From the NCBI RefSeq assembly GCF_028583425.1, contig NC_072800.1:94519001-94583000 (forward strand): a DNA stretch of 64,000 nt, in the 5' to 3' direction. Made by a program: the position numbers and the translations under genes. Shown here one piece after another: positions 10,336 through 58,000 of the stretch; the stretch's first letter is position 1; every line of letters starts with the position of its first letter. Source of the DNA: Eublepharis macularius (Eukaryota; Chordata; Lepidosauria; Squamata; Eublepharidae). Below the pieces are notes generated by a model. The model did no database searches. It was given only the letters and a program-made list of their open reading frames with translations, and was not told where the DNA came from.

Positions 10336-11223
10336 GTTTACGCCATACCTTTTACTTCTCCTTTATATTAGGTTTTAATTGTATTCATGATTTTCTGACG
10401 GTCGTAGGCTTTGAAAAAATACAGTTTTAAAAATGGATTAGGATGTCTCTCTGGGGAGTCTGATAGCTGGCCATCGAACTTCATATTTGTGGTTTTTAAT
10501 CCTGGATTCCGGGTGCAAAAAAAAAGAACGAGGCTCCGTTGCCCTGCCGGGATGAGCTGAGTTCCAAGTTCTGAGCTCCAGTGGGTTGCTGAGCCTCAGT
10601 TTCCGGGTGTTGCTCTGTGATGCAACTGCTTCCTGCCTGTGGCCCTTTGCAGTATGGGCAGGTGGATGGGAAGCTGCTGTCTTTGTTCGTGGGGGGGCGG
10701 GGCGGGGGATAGGCCTGATCATGTGAACCTTCCACCTGTTTCCTGCTGGTCATACAAGCATCAGGACTCTTTCCAGCGGCCAGGCTATGCCATTTCCCAG
10801 TCCCTGATCCTGCCCCGGACTGAGTGAGGGGAGGAGCTCTGTACAAAGGACCCTGGCTGCTTGTCGAGCCCAGCTGCAGACAGAAGGCTGAGACTGCAGT
10901 TAATACGTATTTTCAGTCCCTTGTGCAAAACCTTCCTGGTTTCAAAATTAACTCTGAAGTAACTCTCAGTAATGAATATTTGTATGTATCACTTGTTCAA
11001 GCAAATTGTTTAATAAGATTCCTCCCAACATCCCACCTCACACTGCTGTAACGTCAGCAAAGGTAATCCTAATCCATATTTAACAGGTTGTCATCTTTCA
11101 GCAAACAGCTTCATAGTACAATATAACAGAGACCACACATGTTCAGTCATTCAGTGGCTTAGTTTTTCCAACGTACAAACAATTCCTGTTAAGCACAACA
11201 CAAAACTAGATTCTGAACAGACA

Positions 11224-12053: not shown

Positions 12054-13194
12054 GGTTGTTGGGGGTTTTCCGGGCTGTATTGCCGTGGTCTTGGCATTGT
12101 AGTTCCTGACGTTTCGCCAGCAGCTGTGGCTGGCATCTTCAGAGATGTAGCACCAAAAGACGGAGATCTCTCAGTGTCACAGTGTGGAAAAGATGTAGGC
12201 AGGTCATTTGTATCTACTCAGGAGGGGTGGGGTTGGGCTGAGTCATTCTGTAAGAGTTTCCCAGGGTGTGGAATGCTAATGGCGGGAGGCTTCACTGTCT
12301 CCTGAGGAGGTTCTTTTGCATATGGATTGGTGCTTGATGTGCTAATCTTCTCTGCAGGGCTATTGTCGGGTGTGGAGTGTTTTGTTGGCCTGGTGTTTTT
12401 CAGAACCGGAGCCCATGCTCTGTTCATTCTTAAGGTTTCTTCTTTCCTGTTGAAGTTTTGCTTATGCTTGTGAATTTCAATGGCTTCCCTGTGCAGTCTG
12501 ACAAAGTAGTTGGAAGTGTTGTCCAGTATTTTGGTGTCCTGGAATAAGATACTGTGCCCTGTTTGAGTTAGGCTATGTTCAGCCACAGCTGATTTTTCAG
12601 GCTGTCCAAGTCTGCAGTGTCTTTCATGTTCTTTTATTCTTGTCTGGATGCTACGCTTTGTGGTCCCGATGTAAACTTGTCCACAGCTGCAGGGTATACG
12701 GTATACTCCTGCAGAGGTGAGGGGATCTCTGCTGTCTTTTGCTGATCGTAGCATCTGTTGTATTTTTCGGGTGGGTCTGAATACTGCTTGAAGGTTATGC
12801 TTTTCCATAAGCTTTCCCATCTGATCAGTAATTCCTTTGATATATGGCAAAAACACTTTTCCTGTAGGTGACTGTTTTTCCTTGGTTGTTTGATTCATCC
12901 TGGGTTTGATTGCTCTTCGGATTTCATTTCTGGAGTAGCCATAACCTTCAAGCCTGGGAAACTCTTACAGAATGACTCAGCTCAACCCCACCCCTCCTGA
13001 GTAGATACAAATGACCTACATCTTTTCCACACTGTGACACTGAGAGATCTCTGTCTTTTGGTGCTACACCTCTGAAGATGCCAGCCACAGCTGCTGGCGA
13101 AACGTCAGGAACTACAATGCCAAGACCACGGCAATACAGCCCGGAAAACCCACAACAACCATCGTTCTCCGGCCGTGAAAGCCTTCGACAATAC
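12054..13194 (-). mobile_element. Penelope-like element copy with GIY-YIG endonuclease and inverted ends
   Basis: The two ends are inverted copies of each other (about 135 bp each: tgttg.gggttttccgggctg at the left, its complement ending cgacaatac at the right). Between them the minus strand encodes a GIY-YIG nuclease module (GVYRIPCSCGQVYIGTT, then R-x3-R-x-KEH and a distal AEH), the endonuclease type carried at the C-terminus of Penelope-like reverse transcriptases. The reverse transcriptase itself is not in this copy. Direct repeats aatgccctcatt flank it at 12042-12053 and 13195-13206. It is a decayed fragment and lies in the presumed 3' UTR of the gene ending at 14316. Confidence 0.8.
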
Positions 13195-13206
13195 AATGCC
13201 CTCATT

Positions 13207-14315
13207 CTGACGCGGTTTCACTGGCTCTCAGTGATGCCGGCACATAGCCGACTGACTGGCTACAGGGCAGGATTTCATCTATGAAATGAGAATCCAAAAA
13301 ATGACCCTGAAACAACAAGGCCAAAGAAGCGAAACAACACGGGTAACGACGACAGAAGAATGAACATTTGTATTTTTAGAGGATTTTCATGATCCAATTC
13401 AGCATTTCGGGGGGGAAAGCCCCAAAACCTTGTGCCTGGAAACTGAAATCAGTGGGTCTTCCTTCAAAGAACCCCTGGGTTGGATCTACTCCGGAAATGG
13501 CAGCACCTTCCTCTGGCCCAAGACCCCTTCCCATCAGGGGAAAGTCACCGGCCCAGGACAAGGGGCCATCATTCACAGAATGGAACTTTGGGATCTCCCT
13601 CCAAAGTGCAAATTCTGTTTTCAAAAGTGGCCACTGAAGCAAGAGTGCAGGGGACAAGGACGTGTATCATGCATGGCCTCAGGCCAGTACTTTAAAAACA
13701 ACAACAACAAAACCCTGCAAAAAGAGTCAGTAATGAAGATACGTTCATCTTCTGAAGAGGCTGAGCAGCTTTGGAATGATTGCTTTCTCAAAAAACTCAT
13801 TCTTGATTTGCGGAGTGCTCTGCAGCCAGGTTCTGTTAATGAGAGCTGGTTATGTAAAACAAGCATGGATTTCTCTTATTGTTTTGACGAAGCTTAAGGA
13901 CTAGAGAAGATACCTGAAGGCCTCTTTAATGACGCCAGACCATTTCTGGCAAGCAAAGGCAGCTGCTTCTAGAGGTTAACCTTTAAACACCAGCATGATA
14001 AGCTGAACTTTCCATGCCTGAATTAAAACAGTTTCAGACTCTGTCCTTTCAGAAGATCTCTTTTCTCCACATGCTGAGCATAATTTCAGTGTTTATGTTC
14101 GACAGAATTTTGGCTTAGACTGTTCCTTGGCTTTCCATTAAACCACACCAAACACGAATTTTCATTTGACTGCAAATTCTCAGCCACTGCTTAGGTACAG
14201 AAAAACATGGAATATTGGCTATTATTAAAAAAAATGCATTAGTCTGCTTAATTGTTAGCAGTTCATGTTTAACATGTTTTGCCAAGTGACCTTGACACAG
14301 TACACCATCAGCATT
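13207..14315 (-). other. Presumed 3' UTR of the minus-strand KRAB gene
   Basis: Sequence between the PLE copy and the stop codon at 14316. It is open over some distance on both strands at 13376-13897 but shows no domain, and it lies immediately downstream of a terminal coding exon. Confidence 0.4.
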
Positions 14316-14875
14316 TTACATATAAAGTATATCAAATGGACAACAAGAATCCGTCTGACTGTGCAATGCCGGTCTTGTGGCAAAACCTTTCTTGGGTCCA
14401 CTTTGCTTTTTCTGGCAAAGTTCACAGAGCTTCAAGTAAGTCATTACAGCTTCAGCGGTAACATTTTTATACTTACGACTAAGTTCCTTCAGCATCCTGG
14501 TCCGGCCCCCGTGGCCAATTGTAATATGCGCCTCATGCAGAATATCAAATAAATCCTCGTACTGAACAAAGAACACCACTTCGGTGTGTCCAGGAGAGAT
14601 GGGGACTACCAGCTTCTCTTCTGCACCGATGTTCAGGACGTTGAAGCGCCGCAGGCGGCGATAATGCTTGCCTTTTTTGCTGCGAAGCCTTTTTGCCTCT
14701 TTGACTTCTTCGATCAAAGTCCTGTATCGGTCACGGTTAATGTAACTGTTGTTGTCCTCACGTTTCGTAGCCAGGATCTCCTCCATCATTTCGTAAAAAC
14801 GTCCTCGGTGTTGTTCGCGCAGCCTGTGTTCCATGCCAGCAGCAGCATCCACCCAAGTCAGAAAGGGGGCTGCAC
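14316..14875 (-). CDS. Terminal exon: integrase-like N-terminal zinc (HHCC) module
   Basis: Acceptor ttgcttag, phase 1, stop TAA. The exon reads in frame from the splice site: [14 protein letters not shown], then a basic stretch ([18 protein letters not shown]) and a segment ([22 protein letters not shown]) leading into H-x4-H-x28-C-x2-C, the HHCC zinc pattern of retroelement/Ginger-type integrases. The frame ends about 25 residues after the CxxC, so only the N-terminal part of an integrase is represented and no catalytic domain is present. The text closely follows proteins annotated as KRBA2-like (KRAB-A domain-containing protein 2) in reptiles and fish. The module is of mobile-element origin but sits in a spliced host reading frame. 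Confidence 0.85.
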
Positions 14876-17800
14876 CTAAGCAAAGAAGGAACTCTTAACT
14901 CAGCAGGCCCCAGGCAATGCCTGCACTTCCTGGATATGTTAGGGGTGGACCGAAGATAGCTAAAGCACCCCAGCCCTGAGCCTAATATTTTGCAACCATA
15001 GGTCTGCTTTCAAAACAGATATCCTGTGGAAACCACTGGCTCTCCCAAAGATTTATTGTGAATAGATCTGTAAGCAGAGACCCAGCTTTCATACGGAGCT
15101 CTAATTGCAGATCTGTCCCAGAAAACCTACACAGACAACCCCCACAGAGATGCAGTCACATGATCGCATTCACAACAGTGAACATGAAATTATCCTGTTC
15201 ACACAGCGCAAAACTAGAAGTGGTTTCTTTAATAACATCAAAATTTTTATACCATCTAAAACTGTTAGAGAATAGCAAAGAATCACAGATAAAGATATCT
15301 GGGGAGGAAAAAAAAACCCAGGTTCACTAGTTCAGTCCTTAGACACCCAACTAATAAGGACAGAATGGGAGCCTCAGAAATACAATTATACTATGAGACT
15401 TCCCCCAAGCCCTGACCTGGGTCACAGAATCGGAATCATAGGGTTGGCAGGGACCTCCAGGGTCATCTAGTCCAACCCCCTGCACAATGCAGGGAATTCC
15501 CAACTACCTCCCCTTCCCCCCACACCCCCAGTGCCCCCTGCCCAGAAGATGGCAAAACACCGTCAGGATCTCTAGCCAAACTGGCCTAGGGAAAATTGCT
15601 TCCTGAACCCAAGGTGACAACTGGCCTTAATCTAGGCATGTAAGAAGGGGCCACGACAACTAAGCACTGATATCAACCCTGCCCTCCCTCTTAAAATTAA
15701 AAGAGGCGAAACGTCAGGAACTACAATGCCAAGACCACGGCAATACAGCCCGGAAAACCCACAACTACCATCGTTCTCCGGCCGTGAAAGCCTTCGACAA
15801 TAAAAAGCCTTCGACAATACAAAAGAGACTGACTGACTGACTGACTGACAGTAAGACAATCCCTCAAATCCTTTCTCCATTTGATCCTCACAACTACCTT
15901 GTGAAGTAGGTGGACTGGCCCAAGGTCACCCAGCAAGCGTCCATAGCAGAGTGGCAATTTGAACGTGGGTCTCCCAGACCCCTACACCACACTGTTTCCC
16001 AAGCCTTTAAAATGCCACAATGAAGACCAACCCTCGGGGGTAGCTCATGCAGCCATTGAAGACACCTTTAAGCGGGGAGGGGAGTTACTGTAATGAATTA
16101 ACGCATGGAGGCGAATTCTTCTACACTAACGATATTGTTCTGCAAGGTATTTCTCACAGTAGCAGACCCCCATTCTACTGCATTCTTGTTACCAAATAAT
16201 CCCACCCCTCTTTTTACTCAAGAAAACAGGTTTCCAGTTCCAGACTGGACAGCAGGTCACAATGGACAGAACACAACAGTTGCCAGGGCAGGACAGGAGC
16301 TGCATCACCACAAAGCTCTCTGGAGGAAACAGGGCAGCACACTCACCAATTCCAGGCAGTCCTGTCTGCTGCTTACCAGTGCTGGGGCCTTCACCAAGGA
16401 ACAGTGGCTCCTGAGCGTATGGGCTTTCCTGTGGTCCAGCCATAGGTCCGTCTTCATCTGGGACAGCTTGATAATCTGTCCAGGAAGGAGAGATGTCACC
16501 AGATTCTCTCACCTGCCTCCCTGCAGAACAATCAAACCCATAACTATATTTAGGCCCTCGCTGAACATCTGTTTGGTAAAGGACCAACTACCAACCTACA
16601 GAGAGAGTCTGTTTCCTGCCACGGTCACACAACTTCTTGGCATGAAGCCATGCTGTGCATGCAAAGGGGGAGAGCAAAAGACGGCTCTTGGCTGGCAGCG
16701 ACTGAGCAACCACAATGCACAGAGACCCGACCAAGTGAGTTTCTGCGATGGGACGGACGGGGGACCTTTAAAATCCCCACAACCCCAAAGCAGCCCATTG
16801 GGTTAAACAAGACACTCATCCCTCAACTAACTGGAGCCCTTTGGATGGGGAAACAATAAATCTTAGACACAACTACGCTATACCAGTTAAACTCGCTAGG
16901 ATCATAAATACAATTATCATCACAAAAGTGGCAGAGGCAGCCATTAAAAACATGACAAGATCCGCCCTGAGCCTGCTGATGCGGGGAGGGCGGAGTATCA
17001 ATCGAATAAAATAAGTAAGACAGGCCTTAAAGTGCAGAACCTGTCAGGAGGGAACGAGAACCGCAGCTAAGCAACCTGGAAGGACAGACTTGCAGATGAA
17101 TTTCCAGCAATGGAAGAGTGCCCCCAGCATAGCCCCCGTTTGCCTTGTTTCCCAAACTCAGTGTGTCTTGGGAAAGGAAGCCAGCCAGGACATGAAAGAG
17201 GGTCCACTGAATAAAATGCTGCTCTGTAACTTGTTTGTGGGGAAAACTGCCTATCCCCGTCATGCGGGCACATGGCCATCATTTTCAGGATGTAACCTCA
17301 ACAAGGAAATATCTATTATTCTCTAGGACTGGGATAACTTGGTCCCACCAATATCTTAAAGTCAAGCAGAGGTACATTCCAGTAGAAATTTCACCCTGAA
17401 AGCAATAAAACAGAAACGCAAGGAAACAGAACTTGGGAAAGAGGGTGGAGGAAGAGAAAGACCAGCCTGTCTGGAGATTAAGAGTGTAACATGTAACTGG
17501 TTCGTCTGAATTATTTTAGCTCTAATCACGGATTAAAATGGCATCCATGTCCGTGTCTTGGGAGAGAATCTGCAGAATTCTCACATTCTTTTCAAGAACA
17601 AGCATTCGGCCGCATCCAGTTCTGAGAGCGGCTGAATGCAAGACTCACCCAGGGCAGCACTGGGGCAGGCACCGCCTTCGCTGCAGTCCCCGGGATCAAA
17701 GCGCACCTCCTCCACCTCTTCTTTAATCCACGAGGAAGCACCCGTTGCAGCAATTGGGGAGCCTGTGGCAGAAGACAGCACAGTGCGTTGTTTTACCTGA

Positions 17801-20800
17801 GAGAGAGAAGTCTCACACAAAATCCAAGGGAAAGGTGCTGCATAGCAAGGAAGTGGGACGAAAGCAGGGCTGCTTGGCAGGCCAGGAAGCTGAGGCGAAG
17901 GAGGGCGCACTGCAGCCGAAGGAAACAGCAGTAGGCGAAGTACACATCAGAAAGGTGGGGAAAAGGAGTTGAAGAAAAGGGTAAAGCACAAAAGGCAGAG
18001 GAAAGCCAGATTTAAATGCATGAAGCAAATCCCATAAGAGGGCACAGGAAGTGATCCAAAGACTGACGAAAGAAACAGTCTTCAAGCCAGGCACGTGCAT
18101 TCTTGCTTAAGACTGAGCAGCCAATGCCATTAATTCAATCCTCACCCATATGTGAGCCATCACTGAACTCTCTCGCCTCCTCGAGGGGCCCATTGTTCCC
18201 ACCTGGTTGTGCCTCGACCTCTTGCTTAAGCCACAAGGAAACGTCCACCGGAGCAACTGGGGAGTCTGCACAGAAGAGGGAAAGAGTACTGTGGAAAGGG
18301 GTGGCGTCACCAAGCTAAGACCGTGGGAATGGTCGTGGGGTTTTCAGACCTCCTGGAACCCCAAAGGAATGGGGCTTGCAAGTCTATCCCTTCACAGTCC
18401 TGAACAGAGAGATGTGGACCTTACCACAGGCCGAGGGTGCAAGTCCGCATCTTCAGCCTCGATGTCCCCGACTAATTTCCAAATTCTACCAACAGATAAG
18501 CTCCAAGCTTCAGATGTCTGCCAGTGTACCTGTGCCAAGGTCCAGAGGGACACTGCTCCCAACTGCGATTCCAGGACCTCTCTCACACAGCTCCTGCCCT
18601 TGCTCTATCCGGGACAGAATTTCGGGCTTGGCAACAGCGTAGTCTGTTAGTTGGACAGAAGGATACAAGGTCATTATATGTCATTCATTAACATAAGGAG
18701 CACACAATTAAGGAAGGCATAAATAAACCTACCCTGACTAATACAACTGACTTAACCATATGTAAAAAGGAATGATAGAACCATAGGATTGGAAGGGACA
18801 TTCAGGGTCAGTCCAACCCCCTGCACAGTGCAGGAAATTCACAACTACCCCCCCACACACACACACCCAGTGACCCCCGCTCCATGCCCCGAAGATGGAA
18901 AGCAAAGAATAAGGAGGCACTGGTGGCACTACCCTGACCTTGCATTTCCAATCTCTGATGACCAACAGCCACAGCCTTGCAAGCGGGGGTGGATTGAAGT
19001 CCCCCTTTAAACTATTTTCTTTTAGACACAAACACACGAATTTGAAAGAAGTGTGGTTGTTGTGGGTTTTCCGGGCTGTATTGCCGTGGTCTTGGCATTG
19101 TAGTTCCTGACGTTTCGCCAGCAGCTGTGGCTGGCATCTTCAGAGGTGTAGCACCAAAAGACAGAGATCTCTCAGTGTCACAGTGTGGAAAAGATGTTGG
19201 CAGGTCATTTGTATCTACTCAGGAGGGGTGGGGTTGAGCTGAGTCATCCTGTAAGAGTTTCCCAGGGTGTGGAATGCTAATGGCGGGAGGCTTCACTGTA
19301 TCCTGAGGAGGTTCTTTTGCATATGGATTGGTGCTTGATGTGCTAATCTTCTCTGCAGGGCTATTGTCCAGCACAGAGTGTTTTGTTAGCCTGGTGTTTT
19401 TCAGAACTGGAAACCATGCTCACTGTGACACTGAGAGATCTCTGTCTTTTGGTGCTACACCTCTGAAGATGCCAGCCACAGCTGCTGGCGAAACATCAGG
19501 AACTACAATGCCAAGACCACGGCAATACAGCCCGGAAAACCCACAACAACCATCGTTCTCCAGCCGTGAAAGCCTTCGACACTACATTGAAAGAAGTAAT
19601 CCATATTATGCCCTGACCTGGATAGACCAGGGATCTCGTCAGATCTCAGAAGCTAAACAGGGTCAGCCTTGGTTAGTAATTGGATGGGAGACCTCCAGTG
19701 AAGATCAGGGTTGCAGAAGCAGGCAATGGCAAACCACTTCTGATAGTCTCTTGCCATGAAAACCCTGCCAGGAGTCGCCAGGAGTCAGCTATGACTTGAG
19801 AGCACTCTCTACCACCAATCTATATTATAAAATTAGTGAACAGAAACTAAAAATTAATAATTTACTCCAAGTATTTAGTGACAGCTCTGCATTCTGGGAA
19901 AAATTACTTTATTTAATGCATCGTTAAATCGTTTATAACCTGCTTTTCCCCCCAACACAGAACCAACGTGGCTTGTAACAATGGCTAGCTCAGGCACGAC
20001 TGCACAGCCTCAAGGGCCTCACAAAGAGCCAGGGCTCCAGTTTTTGGTTATATGATACAAGCACCTGTGGCTCCTCAAGCAGGACAAAATTAAAAACACC
20101 AAACAAATTTTAAAAAGGCGTAAGCGAGATGCAGAGTGGCCTTATTCTGAATCAGACTTTGGGTTCCTCTACCCTAGGCAGCCTAAAGTCCCAAGCAGAC
20201 AGAGTCATTTCCTAGTCCCGCTATTGGTGGTGTTGGAAAGTGACGTCAAATCGTAGCCAACTTATGGCAACTCCTGCTGGAGTTTTCAAGGCAAAGGATG
20301 TTCAGAGGCAGTTTGCCATCGCTGCCTCTGCACAGTGACCCTGGACTTCCCTGGAGGTCTCCCATCCAATGACTAAACAAGACGTACCCTGCTTAGCTTC
20401 TGAGATCCGAGGAGATCAGGCTTGTCTGGGCTATCCAGGTCAAGGCAATTCTGTTATTACAACTTTTTAAAAAGACAAGACCTTCAACAACTACTGAGCT
20501 GCTCAGCTAGTCAAATAGCAAATTATTTCATAATCTTGAGGAAGCAGATATTTCCACATTTGTTTCCAGCAGTCCTAAGGCGCTAGCACAGCTGTTCCCC
20601 CCACCACCACCAATCAGTCACTCTGCAGAATGCAGCATTCCATCTGGCTTATTTTCCTCTCTCCCCACCCAAGCATTTGTGGGGAGGATGGAAGAGCTGA
20701 AAGGGAATAAACATTTCCAAGTAGCTTCTCCTGAAACCTCAGAAGTTAAAAATGTATCAAGGGGTCAAAAAGCAGGCTGAGCAAAGGTTTTAAACAGGTC

Positions 20801-22827
20801 TCTGAGGACAAACATCCATATCCCCAATCAGGGCTTTTTTCTGGGAAAAGAGGTGGTGGAACTCAGTGGGTTGCCCTTGGAGAAAATGGTCACATGGCTG
20901 GTGGCCCCACCCCCTGATCTCCAGACAGAGGGGAGTTGTGCAGAGGGCAATCTCAACTCCCCTCTGCCTGGAGATCAGTGGGCGGGGCCACCAGCCATGT
21001 GACCCTTTCCAAGAGGTTCCGGAACTCCATTCCACCGCGTTCCCGCTGAAAAAAAGCCCTGTCCCCAGTCAATATCACATTTCAAACATTTGAGGAAAGG
21101 GAGGCTCCCTCACCCAGAGAGACCAAAGTCTCATAGTTGCTTTTCATGACAGCCCTGTAGAGATCCTTCTGCAGCTCATCCAGGTCACCCCATTCCTGCT
21201 CGTTGAAGTGGACCGAGACATCGTCAAAGGTTATCGGCACCTGAAAGAGCAAGAGTGACACGCTCCCCCCGTTCAGACTGCAAACTGGAAAGGCAGCGTA
21301 CTGCAAGCCGGTCAGGGATTCTCTCCCGTGGCCTTGTCACAAGCAGAGCGTTTGGTCATACGCTGCCCTTTTCAGACAGCTCAATAATTTTGCTTCAAAA
21401 GATCCACAGGCGTCTTGCAGTCCCATTCAAGACAGTGGGACTGTCTGGGGAAATTAAAACATTTGTATAACAAGCCACCTGTTGAATGTCCACAAAAAGC
21501 TCTAGGGAGTATCTAGATGGCAGTTTCCTGCCTAGGCCCGTAGCATGAAGGAAATGCCTTTTCTTCTGAACACCCTGCCCGTGAGTGTCAGGAGACAGAA
21601 ACGAAGGACTCGGCCCACTTGATGTTCTGCACTGCTGCCAACGTGAATCACAGAATCCTGCGTTCAGTATGACATGCGGCATGTCCGTCAATTCTCTGAA
21701 AAATCACAGCTTTCATTTATTTCAGCATGGGAATGTTTCTTAATCTTTACGGCTGTGAAATAAATGCTTTTGGAGATGAAGGCTGCATCTGCCAAATGCC
21801 CGAGGGGTGGAATCAGGACGGGCTTTGATGACTGAAGATTTTTTTCCAGGTATGTCCTTCGTAACAGCCTCAGTCCCAACTCCCTCCCCTGCAAACATTG
21901 CCTGCCTCTTTGCTTTCTTCTCTTTGCCACCCACTATTCTGTAACTAGGACAAAACCTAAACCACAGCAGGAAGCAAACTGTCTCAACATACAGTGATTA
22001 GGCTTAACAAAATGTACACCATCCATTTAGTAAGTTGATCAAATAAATACGATGCGGTCAAATTGAAAAGAGCAGCGTTCAGCGCCATAAGGGGGAAAGG
22101 CTACACTCAGGGCCTCTCCAGGAATCTCTGCTTAAGACAGTAAACCTGTATCCTTGCCCTGTATCCTAAACTGGCAGGCAGGCAGGCCTTCGTCCTGGTA
22201 AGCACATCTGAATAGAACCAGGTATAAATGTTTTATCATCTATGTTTAATGCATACTGTTATATTCTTGCTATATGCGGCATGCCAAATGGCAGAAGAGG
22301 GAGATGAGTTTACCTCACATTTGCATACGTCAGTTGCATAATTACATTTATGAATTGGCAGAATATGGGGCAAGGGCCACAGGGGCAGAACTCTGGGTTT
22401 GGACTTGCAGTAAGCTGGCATGTCTGACCTTGGGGGTTTCTCCCTTGGAGCCCGGGGGCAGCCTCAGGATCCAGAAGTTCCGGTTCCTGAGCAGATTCTC
22501 CATGTTCTCCAGCCTCCTCTGCAGCTGCTCATATTCCTCCATCAAGGTTCCCAAGGCAGCCCACTTGCCCTCCAGCTGGTTCTCCATTTCCACCGTGGCC
22601 TTCTGACATCCTGTCAGCTTTTTCTCCGCTGAGCCCATCCTGCCCTCCAGACGTAACAAGCGCACGGTGTGGGCATCCACCGTCTTGTCTACAGCCTGGA
22701 TCGCAGCCACTGCAGCCCACATGGAAGTCTCCGACGTCTGAACCTGCATCTCTCGTGTAGCTGCCCGTTTGGGGCTGCCAGGGAGCTGGAAAGGCAGAAG
22801 AGGCCTTGATTGTGCCTCACACTCCAT
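14316..22827 (-). CDS. DUF3669-KRAB protein with C-terminal integrase-like HHCC module
   Basis: A complete spliced gene. Coding exons (minus): 22827-22429, 21240-21114, 18643-18530, 18265-18146, 17762-17649, 16475-16347, 14875-14316; the total is 1563 nt, 520 residues. Every junction is GT-AG and every one after the KRAB exon is phase 1. Order: DUF3669 coiled coil (about residues 35-133), KRAB-A (134-175), an exon beginning [17 protein letters not shown] (the usual post-KRAB exon), two exons with sumoylation-type LKQE and IKEE, a further short acidic exon, then a 186-residue last exon that holds an integrase-type zinc module where relatives have C2H2 fingers. An untranslated first exon ends at 24122 in a CpG island. 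Likely nuclear; the KRAB suggests repression, the tail suggests DNA or protein binding without catalysis (inference). The closest known plan is mammalian KRBA2, also a KRAB-integrase fusion, but I do not know DUF3669 in it. Confidence 0.85.
15426..15655 (-). repeat. CR1-like LINE 3' end
   Basis: Contains gggttggcagggacctccag and tctagtccaaccccctgcac, the standard reversed CR1 3' terminus. It lies in the last intron of the integrase-like gene. Confidence 0.7.
15705..15820 (-). mobile_element. Penelope-like terminal repeat, solitary
   Basis: One terminal segment of the PLE family at 12054 (gaaacgtcaggaactacaat to ccttcgacaatac); the last unit (aagccttcgacaata) is present twice in tandem. No inverted partner is found, unlike other copies in the window. 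Confidence 0.75.
15826..15849. repeat. (GACT)n microsatellite
   Basis: Six tandem GACT units directly after the PLE terminal segment. Confidence 0.9.
15875..15995 (-). repeat. tRNA-derived SINE, reversed
   Basis: Reads as the reverse of a squamate SINE: cccaaggtcacccagcaagc, then ttgaacgtgggtctccca and taca.cacactg, corresponding to the tRNA-like B-box region and the conserved GACCTTGGGC body. Confidence 0.6.
16347..16475 (-). CDS. Acidic linker exon with two in-phase donors
   Basis: Acceptor tcctggacag; the peptide is (D)[16 protein letters not shown] onwards. Two donors keep phase 1: the stronger one ends the exon at 16347 (ttg/gtgagt), a weaker one at 16377 (ctg/gtaagc). Use of the second would drop ten residues ([10 protein letters not shown]) without changing the frame. 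Confidence 0.75.
17649..17762 (-). CDS. Linker exon with IKEE motif
   Basis: 114 nt, phase 1 to 1. The peptide has [18 protein letters not shown]. SWIKxE is the conserved core of this exon in ZNF398/ZNF282-type genes (SWIKQEEEP in ZNF398) and is a consensus sumoylation site. Confidence 0.85.
18146..18265 (-). CDS. Linker exon with LKQE motif
   Basis: 120 nt, phase 1 to 1; the peptide includes [17 protein letters not shown]. It is a paralogue of the exon at 17649-17762: both read SPxA near the start, then [SL]W[IL]KxEVE, so one probably arose by exon duplication. Confidence 0.85.
18530..18643 (-). CDS. Post-KRAB exon ([14 protein letters not shown])
   Basis: 114 nt, phase 1 to 1, acceptor ccaactaacag. 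[18 protein letters not shown] is the standard KRAB-B-like segment that follows the A box in this family (compare DYAINQPDVLSQIQ in ZNF398). Confidence 0.9.
18776..18905 (-). repeat. CR1-like LINE 3' end
   Basis: ggattggaagggacattcag and ccaaccccctgcacagtgca are the reversed CR1 3' end; a short CA tract follows at 18853-18868. Confidence 0.7.
19053..19586 (-). mobile_element. Penelope-like foldback, 534 bp, with target duplication
   Basis: Inverted terminal segments as in the copy at 12054, with only the distal part of the internal region retained and no nuclease module. Direct repeats ttgaaagaagt flank it exactly at 19042-19052 and 19587-19597. Inserted in the intron between the KRAB exon and the post-KRAB exon of the minus-strand gene. 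Confidence 0.85.
19608..19825 (+). repeat. 5S-rRNA-derived SINE
   Basis: gatctcgtcagatctcagaa, then gctaaacagggtcagcc and ttggatgggagacctcc correspond to the internal promoter region of 5S rRNA; the body includes aggcaatggcaaaccact and ends gtcagctatgacttgag. This is a SINE3-type element, not a functional 5S gene. Confidence 0.8.
20232..20455 (-). repeat. 5S-rRNA-derived SINE
   Basis: Reversed copy of the same family as 19608: gaggtctcccatccaatgac, cttagcttctgagatccgag and the tail gtagccaacttatggcaact. Confidence 0.8.
20829..21061. mobile_element. hAT-like foldback MITE
   Basis: Starts cagggctttttt and ends aaaaaaagccctg, with long inverted arms (atggtcacatggctggtggc is repeated inverted). 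Flanks tccccaat (20821-20828) and tccccagt (21062-21069) match at 7 of 8 positions, as expected for the 8-bp hAT target duplication. Confidence 0.75.
21114..21240 (-). CDS. KRAB-A exon of the integrase-like gene
   Basis: Exactly 127 nt, the usual KRAB-A exon size, phase 0 to 1. Peptide [17 protein letters not shown], then [18 protein letters not shown], then TLVSLG. The canonical MLE near the end is absent, as in other DUF3669-linked KRABs, so TRIM28 binding may be weak (inference). Confidence 0.92.
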
Positions 22828-22830
22828 AGC
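22429..22830 (-). CDS. DUF3669 exon with start codon
   Basis: Acceptor gcaaagcag at 22831 onwards; ATG at 22827-22825 in a good context (GCTATGG). The peptide is [13 protein letters not shown], later [84 protein letters not shown]. It aligns along its length with the DUF3669 coiled coil of ZNF398/ZNF282/ZNF777, thought to mediate protein contacts. It ends in phase 0 at AAG/GTCAGA. The related gene at 42.5 kb starts translation one exon earlier. Confidence 0.92.
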
Positions 22831-23434
22831 CTGCTTTGCAAAGAGAGAAGCCCACAAAGGCCTTTTAAATTTCAGGTGACATTTACTGCAATTCAGAAAG
22901 ATCCTTCTCCCCGCCTCATCTTCATTTGTTTGCGTAACACTCTCCATCCTCTAAAATGTCAGAGGCAGTTACATCATTTGATTAAACAGCACCAGGAGCT
23001 AGGCAATTTTCTTCACAACCTGCAAGCGCTTTGTGAACATTTAGTCTAGGGACAGGAAACTAATGGTGGTGCAGGGGCTCAGAATAGATTCCTTCAGTAG
23101 CCTCCCACCTTTATAATGTACCTAGGCCACCCCAGGTGACAGTGGTGCTGTCAACTTTGCCCCACTGTTGTTATTCTCAGCGGAAGGAAGATGCCGGTTT
23201 TTAAGAGAGCCCTTTGCTTGCACAAGAGCTATTTCAGCACGGACGGAAGCAAGTCAGCAGGCAGAAGCGCCACTGGCCCTTCAAACCTGGCTCAATTCAA
23301 GTACCACCTCTGCCTCTCAATGCTCGGCTCTAACCCTTTCTGGGTTATGCCAAAGGAATTTTCCTCCAGGCCAGACTGGCCAGGGATCCTGAAGGTTTTC
23401 TGCTTTCCTCTGGGGTCACGGGGGGGGGGGGGGG

Positions 23435-23505
23435 CTGTGAATTTCCAGGACTGTGCAGGGGGTTGGACTAGATGCCCCTGGGGTACATTCCAGCTCTATG
23501 ATGAT
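23435..23505 (+). repeat. CR1-like 3' end fragment
   Basis: gtgcagggggttggactaga, then attccagctctatgatga, the sense-strand CR1 3' end. Preceded by a G run at 23419-23432. Confidence 0.65.
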
Positions 23506-23639
23506 AGTTGACCAGGGGCTCGGATTGTGCTCGGGCTGCCATAGCACAACATGTAAGACACCTTTTGAAAAAGCAAGGAGAACGTGCCAGTCCTTCACAA
23601 AGCCACGAAGGAAGCGGTTCCAGGCCACCTGTGGGGGGT

Positions 23640-24540
23640 CTGGGGAGCCACAAGCCTCAGCTGGGGGGGGGAGATCAGGGGGGCGCCCTCGGGCCAGACC
23701 CTTGCAGGCGCCCCAGGAGGCCGAGGCTTGGCCAAGGCCGTCAGGCGGCCCCGTTGCCAGCCTCCAGGTGGTGGCTGGGGATCTCCCGGAATTACAGCGG
23801 ATCTCTGGGCCGTGGCGACCAGTTCCCCGGGAGAAAAGGGCTGAGCCCGCTAGAGTCTCCGCCCCCCAAGCCTCCAGGCATTTCCCGGCGTGGACCTGGC
23901 AAACCTCCTGTGCAGGGAAGGGCCCCGCGGCTCCACACGAAGCACGCCCGGCTGTCCTTCGCCAGCCCCGGCCAGGCCTTCGGGCCCCGGAGCCTGCCCC
24001 CGCGCCAGGGCGCCTCAAGCTCCCCACCCAAGCAGGCGGCGCTTCGCCGGGGCCGAAGGCGGGCCAGGCCAACCGCAGCCCCCCCGGGACCACCAGGCCC
24101 GGCCCCTCCCCCGCCCCTCACCTGGACAGGCGCCCCGGCCGAGGCTCCGCACAGGCAGCGCAGGGCGTGACGCGAGCCAGGCAAGCGCGCAGGCGCACCA
24201 GCGGCGGCGGCGACGCCCCCTCCCCCCACGGGCGCCGGTCGAGTGCGGGGGAGGGGCTCCTCCCTCCCCCCACCTCAGGGCCGGCGGCGGCGGCGCCCCC
24301 TGCGGGCCGGGGAGGCGAAGGGCTCGTTTTGGCGGGAAAGGCGGCGGGAGACGACGCCCGGGAGGCCCTCCGAGGCAGCGTTGCGGGACGCCCGCCGGCG
24401 AGTGGCTCTGCGCGAACAAGCCTTTGCTCGAGGCCTCCGCGGAGCAGCCAGTGGACGCGCCGGGCCTGGCGGGAACTGGGCCGCAGGGGCGGCCGGTTGG
24501 TCCGGAGGCACCGGAGAGGCCAGCGAGCTTTATGCATTTC
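23640..24540 (-). promoter_or_regulatory. CpG island / promoter and untranslated exon 1 of the integrase-like gene
   Basis: Dense CpG and G/C-rich sequence at the 5' side of the minus-strand gene. A donor (gcgcctgtccag/gtgagg) ends a first exon at 24122, and closely resembles the first donor of the 42.5-kb gene (cctgcccag/gtgagg). No ATG occurs on the minus strand for over 200 nt upstream of it, so this exon is taken as untranslated. Long open frames on both strands here (up to 386 codons) follow base composition and are not called. Confidence 0.75.
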
Positions 24541-31186: not shown

Positions 31187-32335
31187 TTGGAGGTGGGACT
31201 AAGCTGTGAAGTGGCTAAGTTTGCAGATGACACTAACAGTGCAATCCTATGAAGAGTTACTCCAGTCTAAGCCCATTGAAGTCAATGGGCTTAGACTGGA
31301 GTAACTCTCCATAGGATTGCACTGTAAATTGTTCAGGGTGGTGAGAACCAGGGAGGATTGTGAGGCACTCCAAAGGGATCTGTCGAGGCTGGGCGAGTGG
31401 GCGTCAACGTGGCCAATGAGGTTCAACGTGGCCAAGTGCAAAGTAATGCACATTGGGGCCAAGAATCCCAAATATAAATACACAATGATGGGGTCCAAAC
31501 TGGCAGAGACTGACCAAGAGAGAGATCTTGGAGTCGTGGTGGATAACTCACTGAAAATGTCGATACAGTGTGTGACGGCAATAAAAAAAGCCAAAGCTAT
31601 GCTGGGGATTATTAGGAAGGGAATTGAAAACAAATCAGCGAGTATCATAATGCCCCTGTATAAATCAATGGTACAGCCTCATTTGGAATACTGTGTACAA
31701 TTCTGGTTACCACACCTCAAAAAAGATATGATAGCACTGGAAAAAGGGCAGAAAAGGGCAACTAGAATGATTAAAGGGATGGAACACTTTCCCCTATGAA
31801 GAAAGGTTAAAGCGCTTGGGGCTCTTTAGCTTGGAGAAACGACAACTCAGGGGTGACATGATAGAAGTGTACAAGATTGTGCATGGGACAGAGAAGGTAG
31901 AGAAAGAAGGATTTTTCTCCCTTTCTCACAATACAAGAACTCGTGGGCACTCAATGAAATTGCTGAGCGGTCGGGTTAGAACGGATAAAAGGAAGTCCTT
32001 CTTTACCCAAAGGGTGATTAACACGTGGAATTCACTGCCTCAGGAGGTGGTGGCAGCTTCAAGAGGGGATTGGATAAACATATGGAGCAGAGGTCCATCA
32101 GTGGCTATTAGCCACAAGGTATAGCTGGAACTCTCTGTCTAGGGCAGTGAGGCTCTGTATTCTTGATGTTTGGGGGGCGGGCAATCAGTGGGAGGGCTCC
32201 TAGTGTCCCTTCCCCACTGGCAGACCTCCTGAGGACACCTGGTTTTTTGGCCACTGTGTGACACAGAGTGTTAGACTGGATGGGCCATTGGCCTGATCCA
32301 ACATGGCTTCTCTTATGTTCTTATAGCAGTTCTTC
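31187..32335 (+). mobile_element. CR1 LINE, C-terminal RT and 3' UTR
   Basis: Encodes the distal CR1 reverse transcriptase (NVAKCKVMHIGAKNPKY, then ERDLGVVVDNSLKMS, MVQPHLEYCVQFW) up to NTWNSLPQEVV; one frame change occurs near 31795, after which the frame resumes at 31816. The 3' UTR ends catggcttctcttatgttct. An 88-bp palindromic element is inserted near its 5' edge. Only the 3' third of a CR1 is present. Confidence 0.85.
31237..31324. mobile_element. 88-bp palindromic MITE (Harbinger-like, TAA duplication)
   Basis: Nearly perfect inverted repeat: 43-nt arms with one mismatch around a 2-nt centre, beginning cagtgcaatcctatg and ending cataggattgcactg. The 3-bp repeat taa stands on both sides (31234-31236, 31325-31327), matching the TWA duplication of PIF/Harbinger elements. 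Confidence 0.8.
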
Positions 32336-55000: not shown

Positions 55001-58000
55001 AAAAAATATTGACAGGGGAAGAGGTTACAGATCCGTCCTGCTTTATCTCTGAAGCAATTCAAGAGGCTGTAAGTCCCCAGCAATAATTACATCTCTCTCT
55101 CTATGAAATATAAACTCTTTTTGTCAGTTAAGATGTATTCTTTGGGTACAGGTTTGGTGTGTATGATACTTGGTTGGGAAGTCTTTCATCAGGACAGGTG
55201 CAAAAGATTTTACAAGGGAGTATACGTACGTAGAGACAGATTTTTTTAAAAACAAGGCCAAGGAATTATATTGGGATAAATAGGATATATTTTTTTAAAA
55301 AGTATGTAAGACTTGCTGATCTCTTGATGAGTATAACATCCAGCAATGGCTTGTATGTGTGACTAAGCCATACATAGACACAACACTCCAGACTGAACAT
55401 CTCATTTCAATTCAAATGTAGGTATTTTTACTGGACCCAATCCTCAAGTGTAGAGTAAAAGAACAGTTATGTATGAGTCAGCTTTAAATCCAGTTGCTGT
55501 TTACATCCTTGATGAGTTTAAAATATGCTGACAATTCAGCATATTTCAGCATAAAAAACAATTCAGCTTTTTAAGGAATGTTTACAGAAGGCAACCACTC
55601 CAATTTTCAGTTCCTAGCTAAACCATTTTTACTTCTTCTGGAAGATACTCAGTGAATTGCTTGGCCTACCAACATGGTTGGCAGCAGTAGTTAACTAAAA
55701 ATTTAATTATGGCAACCGGCAGGAAGAACCTTCTCTGTGTTCAGATACAGAGTAACAAACGCTGAAAAACCACCAGTGCCTCCTTCAAAATGGCGCCTGG
55801 CTGCGTCAGCGTTGTGAGGTGGAAGAGAATCCTGTCAGCTGATACGCTGCCCGCTCTCTCTCCCCTATGAAGGGTGCAAAGGGGGAGTGTTTGAATTGCC
55901 CCAATTATATCAAAAACAGAATGTGGCCACCTAGGGCAGGAAAAGCAAGCCTATCCCTCATAAGGGATCTAATTTTAAAGCGAACAGGGTTTTCCAGGGA
56001 GTTTATCAGAGATCCTGTAACCTGCCTCTATTACAACAGGGATGGGTTTCCCTTGAGCACTTCTTCTAAATGCCATTGCGTTCCAACCATGGAAGACTGC
56101 GTCACACATGAAGGGACTGGCATTTCGAAGAGGTGACATTTCATGTGGTAAAACCGCTAGAGATGGGGAGACTGGTGGTGCCTTGCAGGGCTGGGGGTTT
56201 GGCACTCCAACTTCCAACCTGTGGCTTAATTCTTGGACTGTGCAAATGCTGGCAGGGCCAGGGCTTCAAAGGGGAGGCTTCTGATTGTGACTGACAGATT
56301 TCAGAATCCATCATGGGGGAGGATGGGGCACCAAGAACCACTTGCCGGGCAGCATCAGCGCCTGCCAAGCTCCGTTGGCCGTAGCAGCCTGTGTTTGCTA
56401 TCTTAGACAATGCCAGATGGCCCTTGCCAATTGCGCCAGCGTTGCTGAGTCCGTCTACTTGGTTCTTGTCACGCCAGCACTTGGATCAAATGAGGGAGGG
56501 ACTGTAAGTCATGATCTCCTCATGGGATGGGCAGAATACAAAATGGCTGGATATATGGGAGCTGCCAGGTCCGATGTGTATGGTTTTGAAATTGTCACTT
56601 GTCCCTTCAGTATCTGAGGATAAACAAACAAATACATACCTGCCGTTCTCAGGGACAGGCCCACGGAGGGGGATTTACTCCTGTTGACACGCAGGAACAG
56701 GTGACCTTTGAGGACATTGCAGTCAGATTCTCCCCCGAGGAGTGGTCCATGCTGGAAGGATGGCAGAAAGAGCTGCACCAAGAAGTGATGGAAGAAAACC
56801 GTGCTTTGCTTCTCTCGCTGGGTAAGGCCTTGCATGGCGCCATTTTGTTGTGGGAAGTGACTTCCCATTCCCTTGTTTTGGACTGGGTGTGGAGAATTTT
56901 GTTCGTTTGAAAAGTTCACTAGTTTGATTTGAACTGATCGGCTTGGTCTCAGGGCCTTGTCCCGTATTGCAGTTTACGAGATAGTTTAAAAGTGTCATTC
57001 ACCTCTTGAACCTTATCAGTTGGTTGGGCCTTTGAAGAATCTTTCGAGAACCGCAGTTCTCTTTGTCAGATGCATTTGATCATATAGCAGCGATATTTTT
57101 TTGTGACTGACCACCGATAATAAACAGCTGTTTCCCTCCCAAGAAGGGTGAGCCTGAGCATGTTTTTGACTTGGGCTGAATCAAGCCCATCTGCGGATGA
57201 GACCTGGACTGAGAATGTTCATCTCCTAAACTGATCCATCTTGGCCCTGATGACCCAGAGAAAACCGGCTAAGAACAGCAGAAGAGCCCTGCTGGATCAG
57301 ACCAGTGGTCCACCCAGTCCAGCCTCCTGTCTCACACAATGGCCAACCAATGGCCAACTCGGGGCGGGGGGGGGGCAACCACAGGGTGTGGAGGCTGGGA
57401 ACTTCCCCTGATGCTGGCCCCTGGCACTGGGGTCCAGAGGTTTACCACCTCTCTGCCTCTGGACGTGGAGGCTCCCATCCGTCACCATGGCTAATAGCCA
57501 CCGATAGGTCTCTCCTCCATGAATATGTCCAACCCCGTTTTAAACCCATCTATGCCCATTGCCATGACGCATTCCTTGGCAGTGAATTCCACATTTTAAG
57601 CACTCGTTGAGCAAAGAAGTGTTTCCTTTTGTCCCTCCTGAATCTACTGCCCATCAACTTAATTGGATACCCTCAAATTCTAGTATTTTGGGAGAGGGGA
57701 AAAAGGTTATCTCTGTCTGCTCTCTCTATCCTGTGCATAAGTCTATAAACCTCGATCAGGGCCCCCCTATGTTGTGCTTTGTGTGTGTGTGTGTGTGTAA
57801 AGTGCCCTCAAGTCATAGCTGACTTATGGCGACCCCTGCTGGGGTTTTCAAGGCACAAGACACTCAGAGGTGGTTTGTCTTTGCCTGCCTCTTCACAGCG
57901 ATCCTGGACTTCCTTGGGGGGGTCTCCCATCCAGGACCGAACAAGGGCCGGCCCTTCGTAGCTTCCAAGATCTGACAAGATCAGGCTGTGTGGGCCGTCC

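What the first reader, a model, noticed from the sequence alone, without database searches (positions are those of the whole stretch)
14316..24122. KRAB gene of the ZNF398/ZNF282 family whose zinc fingers are replaced by an integrase-like HHCC module
Seen: seven coding exons in phase with GT-AG sites and one stop. The first five have clear family likeness, and the last enters an integrase-type zinc module (H-x4-H-x28-C-x2-C) by a normal phase-1 acceptor. Known: mammalian KRBA2 is also a KRAB plus integrase-like protein, at a different chromosomal place. Inference: a DUF3669-KRAB gene in this cluster captured a transposon-type module as its last exon, giving a 520-residue host protein that may aim KRAB repression through a transposon-derived binding module. 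Open question: whether KRBA2 stems from this locus or the two fusions are independent.
Basis: partly seen in the sequence, partly recalled or inferred. Interest (0 to 1): 0.85.

Follow-up and report, generated by a model that had tools for sequence, protein, structure and literature searches.

The report
KRAB gene ending in integrase zinc module
A gene-silencing-type gene in this vertebrate genome seems to lack the usual DNA-reading zinc fingers of its family and instead ends in a small zinc module taken from an old jumping gene, much like a known mammalian gene but built from a different relative.

Summary
Seven coding exons on the minus strand (22830 to 14316) join in phase at GT-AG sites into a 520-residue frame: a DUF3669-type N-terminus, a KRAB box (Pfam 8e-17) and, in the last exon, an integrase H2C2 module (Pfam 7e-7).

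The held genome (2.24 Gb) shows eight DUF3669-type exons at E<=0.001, all on one contig. Seven of 7 others have 5 to 10 C2H2 fingers in the 14-20 kb scanned downstream; this gene has none in 20 kb. The last exon is single-copy. Its one significant relative is a decayed fossil (34%, two stops), and it is not close to the genome's Gypsy-type integrases. It is open over 185 codons; the same frame beyond its stop has five stops in 138.

Best reading: a host-transposon fusion gene, analogous to KRBA2 but built on a DUF3669-KRAB gene and keeping only the zinc-binding part. Its KRAB lacks the MLE motif, so an oligomerising modulator is likelier than a classic TRIM28-recruiting repressor. Transcription, orthologues and cross-species selection could not be tested.

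The parts
24122..24180 (-). putative noncoding first exon, 3' end at 24122 (5' end unknown, 24180 is arbitrary), in a GC-rich stretch
   Evidence: GT donor at 24121-24120 read by eye; GC 0.80 at 24000-24499; not tested by transcripts
22429..22830 (-). coding exon 1: start ATG 22827, DUF3669-type N-terminus, 133 codons
   Evidence: 8 members in own genome at E<=0.001
21114..21240 (-). coding exon 2: KRAB-A box (variant, MKS in place of MLE)
   Evidence: Pfam KRAB E 8.1e-17; sequence printed
18530..18643 (-). coding exon 3
   Evidence: splice sites and frame
18146..18265 (-). coding exon 4, small exon with LWLKQE motif, duplicate of exon 5
17649..17762 (-). coding exon 5, small exon with SWIKEE motif
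16347..16475 (-). coding exon 6, phase-1 donor into the last exon
14316..14875 (-). coding exon 7 (terminal): transposon-derived exon, 185 codons and stop
   Evidence: single copy in genome
14403..14546 (-). Integrase_H2C2 (HHCC) zinc-binding module, residues 445-492
   Evidence: Pfam PF17921 E 3.6e-6 in the whole protein, 7.4e-7 for the exon alone; motif
13980..14315 (-). possible decayed remainder of the integrase core, now 3' of the stop: same frame, interrupted by stops
   Evidence: four in-frame stops in its 112 codons (five in the 138 codons down to 13900), CpG o/e 0.20 over 13900-14315; core likeness rests on recalled motifs; Pfam sees nothing at E<=10

Best explanation
This is a host fusion gene. 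A member of the DUF3669-KRAB zinc-finger cluster lost, or never kept, its C2H2 exon and gained a terminal exon from an integrase-type DNA transposon, most like the Ginger2/KRBA2 kind (family likeness recalled). Shown: frame, splice sites, domains, single copy, absence of fingers, one significant decayed relative. Inferred: it is transcribed and makes a 520-residue nuclear protein. Its DUF3669 part pairs with other DUF3669 proteins, of which the genome has seven more. Its variant KRAB represses weakly. Its H2C2 fold binds zinc and adds a second oligomer interface, perhaps with nonspecific nucleic-acid contact. Having no fingers, it most likely works as a modulator that joins finger-bearing partners and alters their repression, rather than choosing DNA sites itself.
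For: Seven exons in phase at GT-AG sites, one 520-residue frame. KRAB 8.1e-17 and H2C2 7.4e-7. Seven of 7 other DUF3669 genes have 5-10 C2H2 fingers in the 13.8-20.0 kb scanned downstream on the same strand; this gene has 0 in 20 kb. Two neighbouring finger exons use the same acceptor phase (read by eye). The exon is open over 185 codons while the same frame beyond the stop has 5 stops in 138 codons; CpG o/e 0.82 against 0.20. Its one significant relative is a fossil with two stops. Exon 1 against a 54%-identical paralogue: dN 0.30, dS 1.08. DUF3669 oligomerises, and variant KRABs of this family bind TRIM28 weakly (passages).
Against: No transcript, no orthologue and no dN/dS on the last exon could be obtained. 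The H2C2 score is only a little above the curated cut-off (27.4 and 29.6 against 25.5 bits). The decayed-core reading rests on recalled motifs: Pfam sees no rve domain there, and the best match to 26 Gypsy-type integrase stretches has E 0.70; if that stretch was never coding, its stops and low CpG say nothing about selection on the exon. The one fold model was of too low confidence to use (mean pLDDT 38). The last acceptor has the lowest pyrimidine count of the seven (11 of 16; the others 12-15). Fingers were assigned to the other members by strand and nearness, not by spliced models.
Confidence: 0.66

Rival explanations
1. A real DUF3669-KRAB gene in decline: it lost its finger exon, and a nearby transposon relic offers a cryptic phase-1 acceptor, so the fusion frame exists on paper or as a minor transcript without function.
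For: No transcript or orthologue data. The module is truncated before the catalytic core. An acceptor in the right phase occurs by chance about one time in three (inference).
Against: All six upstream exons are intact with GT-AG sites. The last exon is open over 185 codons where the same frame beyond the stop is broken and its one significant relative is broken. High CpG and GC3 in the exon against the flank.
Confidence: 0.24
2. The last exon is a recent or still mobile integrase-type element that happens to lie in the intron or 3' end of the gene.
For: The module is an integrase domain, and the genome holds very many H2C2 matches with long open frames (9882 first-look candidates, 150 scored).
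Against: Single copy. Only one significant relative, a fossil at 34%. Best match to 26 Gypsy-type integrase stretches of this genome has E 2.8. No long terminal inverted repeats at 13200-16300: of 8 pairs the longest is 28 bases at 75%. Catalytic core not in frame.
Confidence: 0.03
3. The exon and KRBA2 descend from one old amniote KRAB-integrase fusion (shared origin).
For: Same pairing of KRAB with an integrase domain. KRBA2 is listed among rve-derived genes (PMC3257199, passages).
Against: PMC3257199 lists KRBA2 with Eutheria-specific domesticated genes. KRBA2 is recalled to have no DUF3669 part and to lie elsewhere. Here the fusion sits inside the DUF3669 cluster.
Confidence: 0.07

Closest known systems
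KRBA2 (mammals)
   Same: KRAB box joined to an integrase-type domain of transposon origin (PMC3257199 passages; title of Llorens et al. 2012 seen in reference lists)
   Different: KRBA2 is filed under rve; here the frame stops before a core. Here a DUF3669 part precedes KRAB (KRBA2 recalled to lack it), and the gene lies in the DUF3669 cluster. KRBA2 is grouped with eutherian-specific genes.
ZNF398 / ZNF282 / ZNF777 / ZNF746 (DUF3669-KRAB-ZNF family, human 7q36.1; PMC6923878 passages)
   Same: N-terminal DUF3669-type exon, KRAB exon, small linker exons, phase-1 entry into the terminal exon (compared here with paralogues of this genome, not with the human genes)
   Different: no C2H2 fingers; an integrase H2C2 exon takes their place
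SCAND3 (ZBED9)
   Same: regulatory N-terminus fused to a similar integrase domain (title of Llorens et al. 2012)
   Different: SCAN instead of DUF3669-KRAB; further domains (recalled)
GIN1, GIN2 and Imagin (Ginger1-derived host genes; passages)
   Same: domesticated integrase that keeps the HHCC finger; catalytic residues lost in Imagin and not conserved in GIN2
   Different: no KRAB found in those papers' text; Ginger1 kind
Host-transposase fusion genes (Cosby et al. 2021; recalled, paper not held)
   Same: TE-derived exon spliced to KRAB exons
   Different: a Ginger-type integrase zinc module rather than a transposase DNA-binding domain

Membership tests
DUF3669-KRAB-ZNF family | DUF3669-type N-terminal exon | tested here: met
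   53-64% identical to the seven other members of the genome, E 3.8e-34 to 1.7e-45. Against it: the Pfam scan at E<=1 listed no DUF3669 model for this protein, nor for the window paralogue at E<=10; whether the library holds that model was not checked.
DUF3669-KRAB-ZNF family | KRAB-A box | tested here: met
   Pfam E 8.1e-17
DUF3669-KRAB-ZNF family | C2H2 zinc-finger array | tested here: not met
   0 fingers within 20 kb downstream on the same strand, against 5-10 in 7 of 7 other members
KRBA2 (orthologue) | KRAB plus integrase-type domain | tested here: met
KRBA2 (orthologue) | DDE-type integrase core in frame | tested here: not met
   stop at 14318-14316, 28 residues after the H2C2 match (match ends at 492 of 520); Pfam sees no rve in the read-on
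KRBA2 (orthologue) | same locus and sequence clade as KRBA2 | not testable with these tools
   no eukaryotic protein collection was on hand; Llorens et al. 2012 not held
Ginger2 transposon | H2C2 zinc finger | tested here: met
Ginger2 transposon | DDE catalytic domain | tested here: not met
   not in frame; Pfam sees none in the read-on
Ginger2 transposon | terminal inverted repeats (45-297 bp in the table of PMC2836005) | tested here: not met
   8 short pairs at 13200-16300, longest 28 bases at 75%; an old relic may have lost them
Ginger2 transposon | sequence clade of Ginger2 | not tested
   likeness to the KRBA2/Ginger2 kind is recalled, not from a call
Gypsy integrase | close likeness to Gypsy-type integrases of the same genome | tested here: not met
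   best E 2.8 against 26 stretches; 15 rows at 34-36% over 51 residues with E 1.5-5.9
Host-transposase fusion gene | in-frame splice of host exons to a TE-derived exon | tested here: met
   (sequence only)
Host-transposase fusion gene | fusion transcript and conservation across species | not testable with these tools
   no RNA data, no related vertebrate genome held

The most novel reading that the evidence does not exclude
An independent capture, outside mammals, of a Ginger2-type integrase by a KRAB gene, here in the DUF3669 cluster. Only the zinc-binding half was kept, giving a fingerless family member that pairs with finger-bearing partners and tunes them. The decayed relatives in this genome would show that this transposon kind once lived in sauropsids.
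Probability: 0.45. Interest if true: 0.66.

Novelty: new variant of a known kind. Interest (0 to 1): 0.57.

Why it matters
If expressed and conserved, it would be a second case of a KRAB gene that took an integrase zinc module, at another locus and from another parent gene, so a test of convergence rather than a single mammalian oddity. It would also be a DUF3669-KRAB protein without fingers, which makes it possible to ask whether this family can act by pairing alone.

Tried and rejected
Relatives of the last exon in viral contigs (local BLAST) and in prokaryote genome contigs: nothing related. Phage records by tblastn: no match. Solved structures by sequence: best E 0.33, chance. NCBIfam: one row at E 0.17, chance. 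Fold of the last exon alone: mean pLDDT 38, so no fold search was run. Idea that the first residues of the last exon are a remnant of a small SWIKE-type exon: not supported (shuffle p 0.26, 0.28, 0.42 and 0.44 against four exon starts or regions). Idea of a recent Gypsy exonisation: rejected. Search of the genome with the stretch after the stop did not complete (9 calls).

Full report
What was checked. I located each by sequence and joined them. All introns are GT-AG; the second exon enters in phase 0 and the next five in phase 1; the frame from ATG 22827 to TAA 14318-14316 codes for 520 residues. The Pfam scan finds KRAB (residues 135-176, E 8.1e-17) and Integrase_H2C2 (residues 445-492, E 3.6e-6 in the whole protein, 27.4 bits; 7.4e-7 and 29.6 bits for the last exon alone; curated cut-off 25.5). 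The HHCC motif is H451-x4-H456-x28-C485-x2-C488.

The parent family. A search of the held genome (2.24 Gb, 72 contigs) with the DUF3669-type exon found 8 places at E<=0.001 among 22 candidates scored, all on contig C11: six between 94.45 and 94.56 Mb, including this gene and one paralogue inside the window, and two at 93.52-93.53 Mb. I scanned 13.8 to 20.0 kb downstream of each on its own strand. Seven of 7 other members have 5 to 10 C2H2 fingers, and this gene has 0 in 20 kb. Fingers were assigned by strand and nearness, not by spliced gene models; in one case (94507223) the scan may span more than one finger exon. tblastn found a KRAB-like exon near 8 of 8, the weakest at 46%. In the window no finger of either strand lies between about 4720 and 33500. 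So I see no rival finger exon for these six upstream exons, and the H2C2 exon takes its place. The terminal exons of two neighbouring finger genes also enter in phase 1, as I read them by eye from the sequence printed. Exon 1 against the minus-strand paralogue of the window (127 codons): dN 0.30, dS 1.08; exon 2 (42 codons): dN 0.30, dS 0.65. These values speak for constraint on the N-terminal part among paralogues, not for the last exon.

The last exon. In the genome it matches itself (2.8e-123) and one other place at E<=0.001, C1:101096120-101096413, 34% identical with two TAA inside. At E<=10 there are 20 rows of 28 candidates scored. Besides these two they are two short, broken stretches (L060, E 0.76; L063, E 1.75), one short open stretch (L066, E 4.7), and 15 long open frames matching only residues 106-156 at 34-36% with E 1.5-5.9, which I take for Gypsy-type integrases. 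L060 reads HGGRNR in the zinc region with a stop, then after a frame shift an FCAPCQK stretch; this is suggestive, not significant. The family search for PF17921 found 9882 first-look candidates, of which 150 were scored and listed, with strong matches and often long open frames; 'Gypsy' is my label. Of the 30 loci fetched, 26 gave a translated stretch; against these the exon's best E was 2.8. The exon is thus neither a recent Gypsy insertion nor, as far as these searches go, part of a living repeat family of this genome.

Signs of constraint from one genome. The exon is open over 185 codons; its other frames hold 9 and 11 stops; chance of an open frame by composition is about 3e-5. Read on in the same frame, the 3' flank has stops at codons 66, 88, 93, 110 and 129 of 138. 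CpG o/e is 0.82 in the exon and 0.20 in the flank, third-position GC 0.51 and 0.35. If the flank is the rest of the same integrase, its stop rate (4 in 115 codons) would give about 6.4 stops in 185 codons, P(0) about 0.002. That premise rests on recalled KRBA2/Ginger2 motifs that I think I see in the read-on. Pfam finds nothing there at E<=10, and the best pairwise match to the Gypsy-type stretches has E 0.70. It should be taken as a lead.

How it may work. Published work: DUF3669 oligomerises among family members, and the KRAB of this family is a variant. In ZNF746b one change towards the MLE motif raised repression and TRIM28 binding, and ZNF746a and ZNF777 segments did not stably bind TRIM28 (PMC6923878, passages; DUF3669 pairing also in PMC6745500, passages). 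Here the KRAB reads MKS at that place. The H2C2 domain is cited as helping multimerisation (PMC12863088, passages), while GIN authors suggest DNA or RNA binding (PMC3424704, passages). I therefore favour a fingerless oligomerising modulator over a self-targeting repressor; this step is inference.

Relation to what is known. KRBA2 is listed with SCAND3, GIN1 and NYNRIN under rve, and among Eutheria-specific domesticated genes (PMC3257199, passages). Llorens et al. 2012 on SCAND3 and KRBA2 is not held; only its title was seen in reference lists, and its conclusion, Ginger2 origin and apparent absence of Ginger2 from vertebrates, is recalled. Bao et al. 2010 (PMC2836005, passages) describe Ginger2 as having H2C2 and DDE domains without the YPYY motif. 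The Repbase review (PMC5753468, passages) names Ginger1, not Ginger2, among the DNA transposon kinds known in human only as genes. Five searches of the library (7, 5, 5, 6 and 4 papers listed) showed no title or abstract start reporting a KRAB-integrase fusion in a reptile; I saw listings and passages only, and most subscription journals are missing.

Verdict. A probable host-transposon fusion gene, of a known kind but a new variant: other parent gene, other locus, only the zinc half kept. What is missing is transcription and comparison with related species.

Noticed in passing
window 10786-10860 (+): Relic of a family exon like coding exon 3 (48% over 25 residues, E 0.025) with an in-frame stop, between this gene and the plus-strand finger exon.
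   Followed up: no
window 17649-18265 (-): Coding exons 4 and 5 are a clear exon duplication; 53 bases align without gaps near their starts.
   Followed up: partly
window 12221-12964 (-): Open frame of 248 codons that looks like the GIY-YIG end of a Penelope-like element (label recalled), just downstream of the gene.
   Followed up: no
window 31305-31796 (+): Open frame like the reverse transcriptase end of a CR1/L2-type LINE (label recalled).
   Followed up: no
window 56701-56859 (+): Another KRAB exon on the plus strand, 36% like this one.
   Followed up: no
L060 and L063 (C1:86752694-86752807 +, C6:58757910-58758077 +): Possible further decayed copies of the same integrase kind; not significant genome-wide (E 0.76 and 1.75); L060 keeps an HGGRNR stretch and, frame-shifted, FCAPCQK.
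   Followed up: partly
G000 C11:93518799-93532622: A second, separate pair of DUF3669 genes about 1 Mb away from the cluster of the window.
   Followed up: partly
G000: Very many integrase H2C2 matches with long open frames (9882 first-look candidates, 150 scored), which suggests young Gypsy-type elements (label mine).
   Followed up: no
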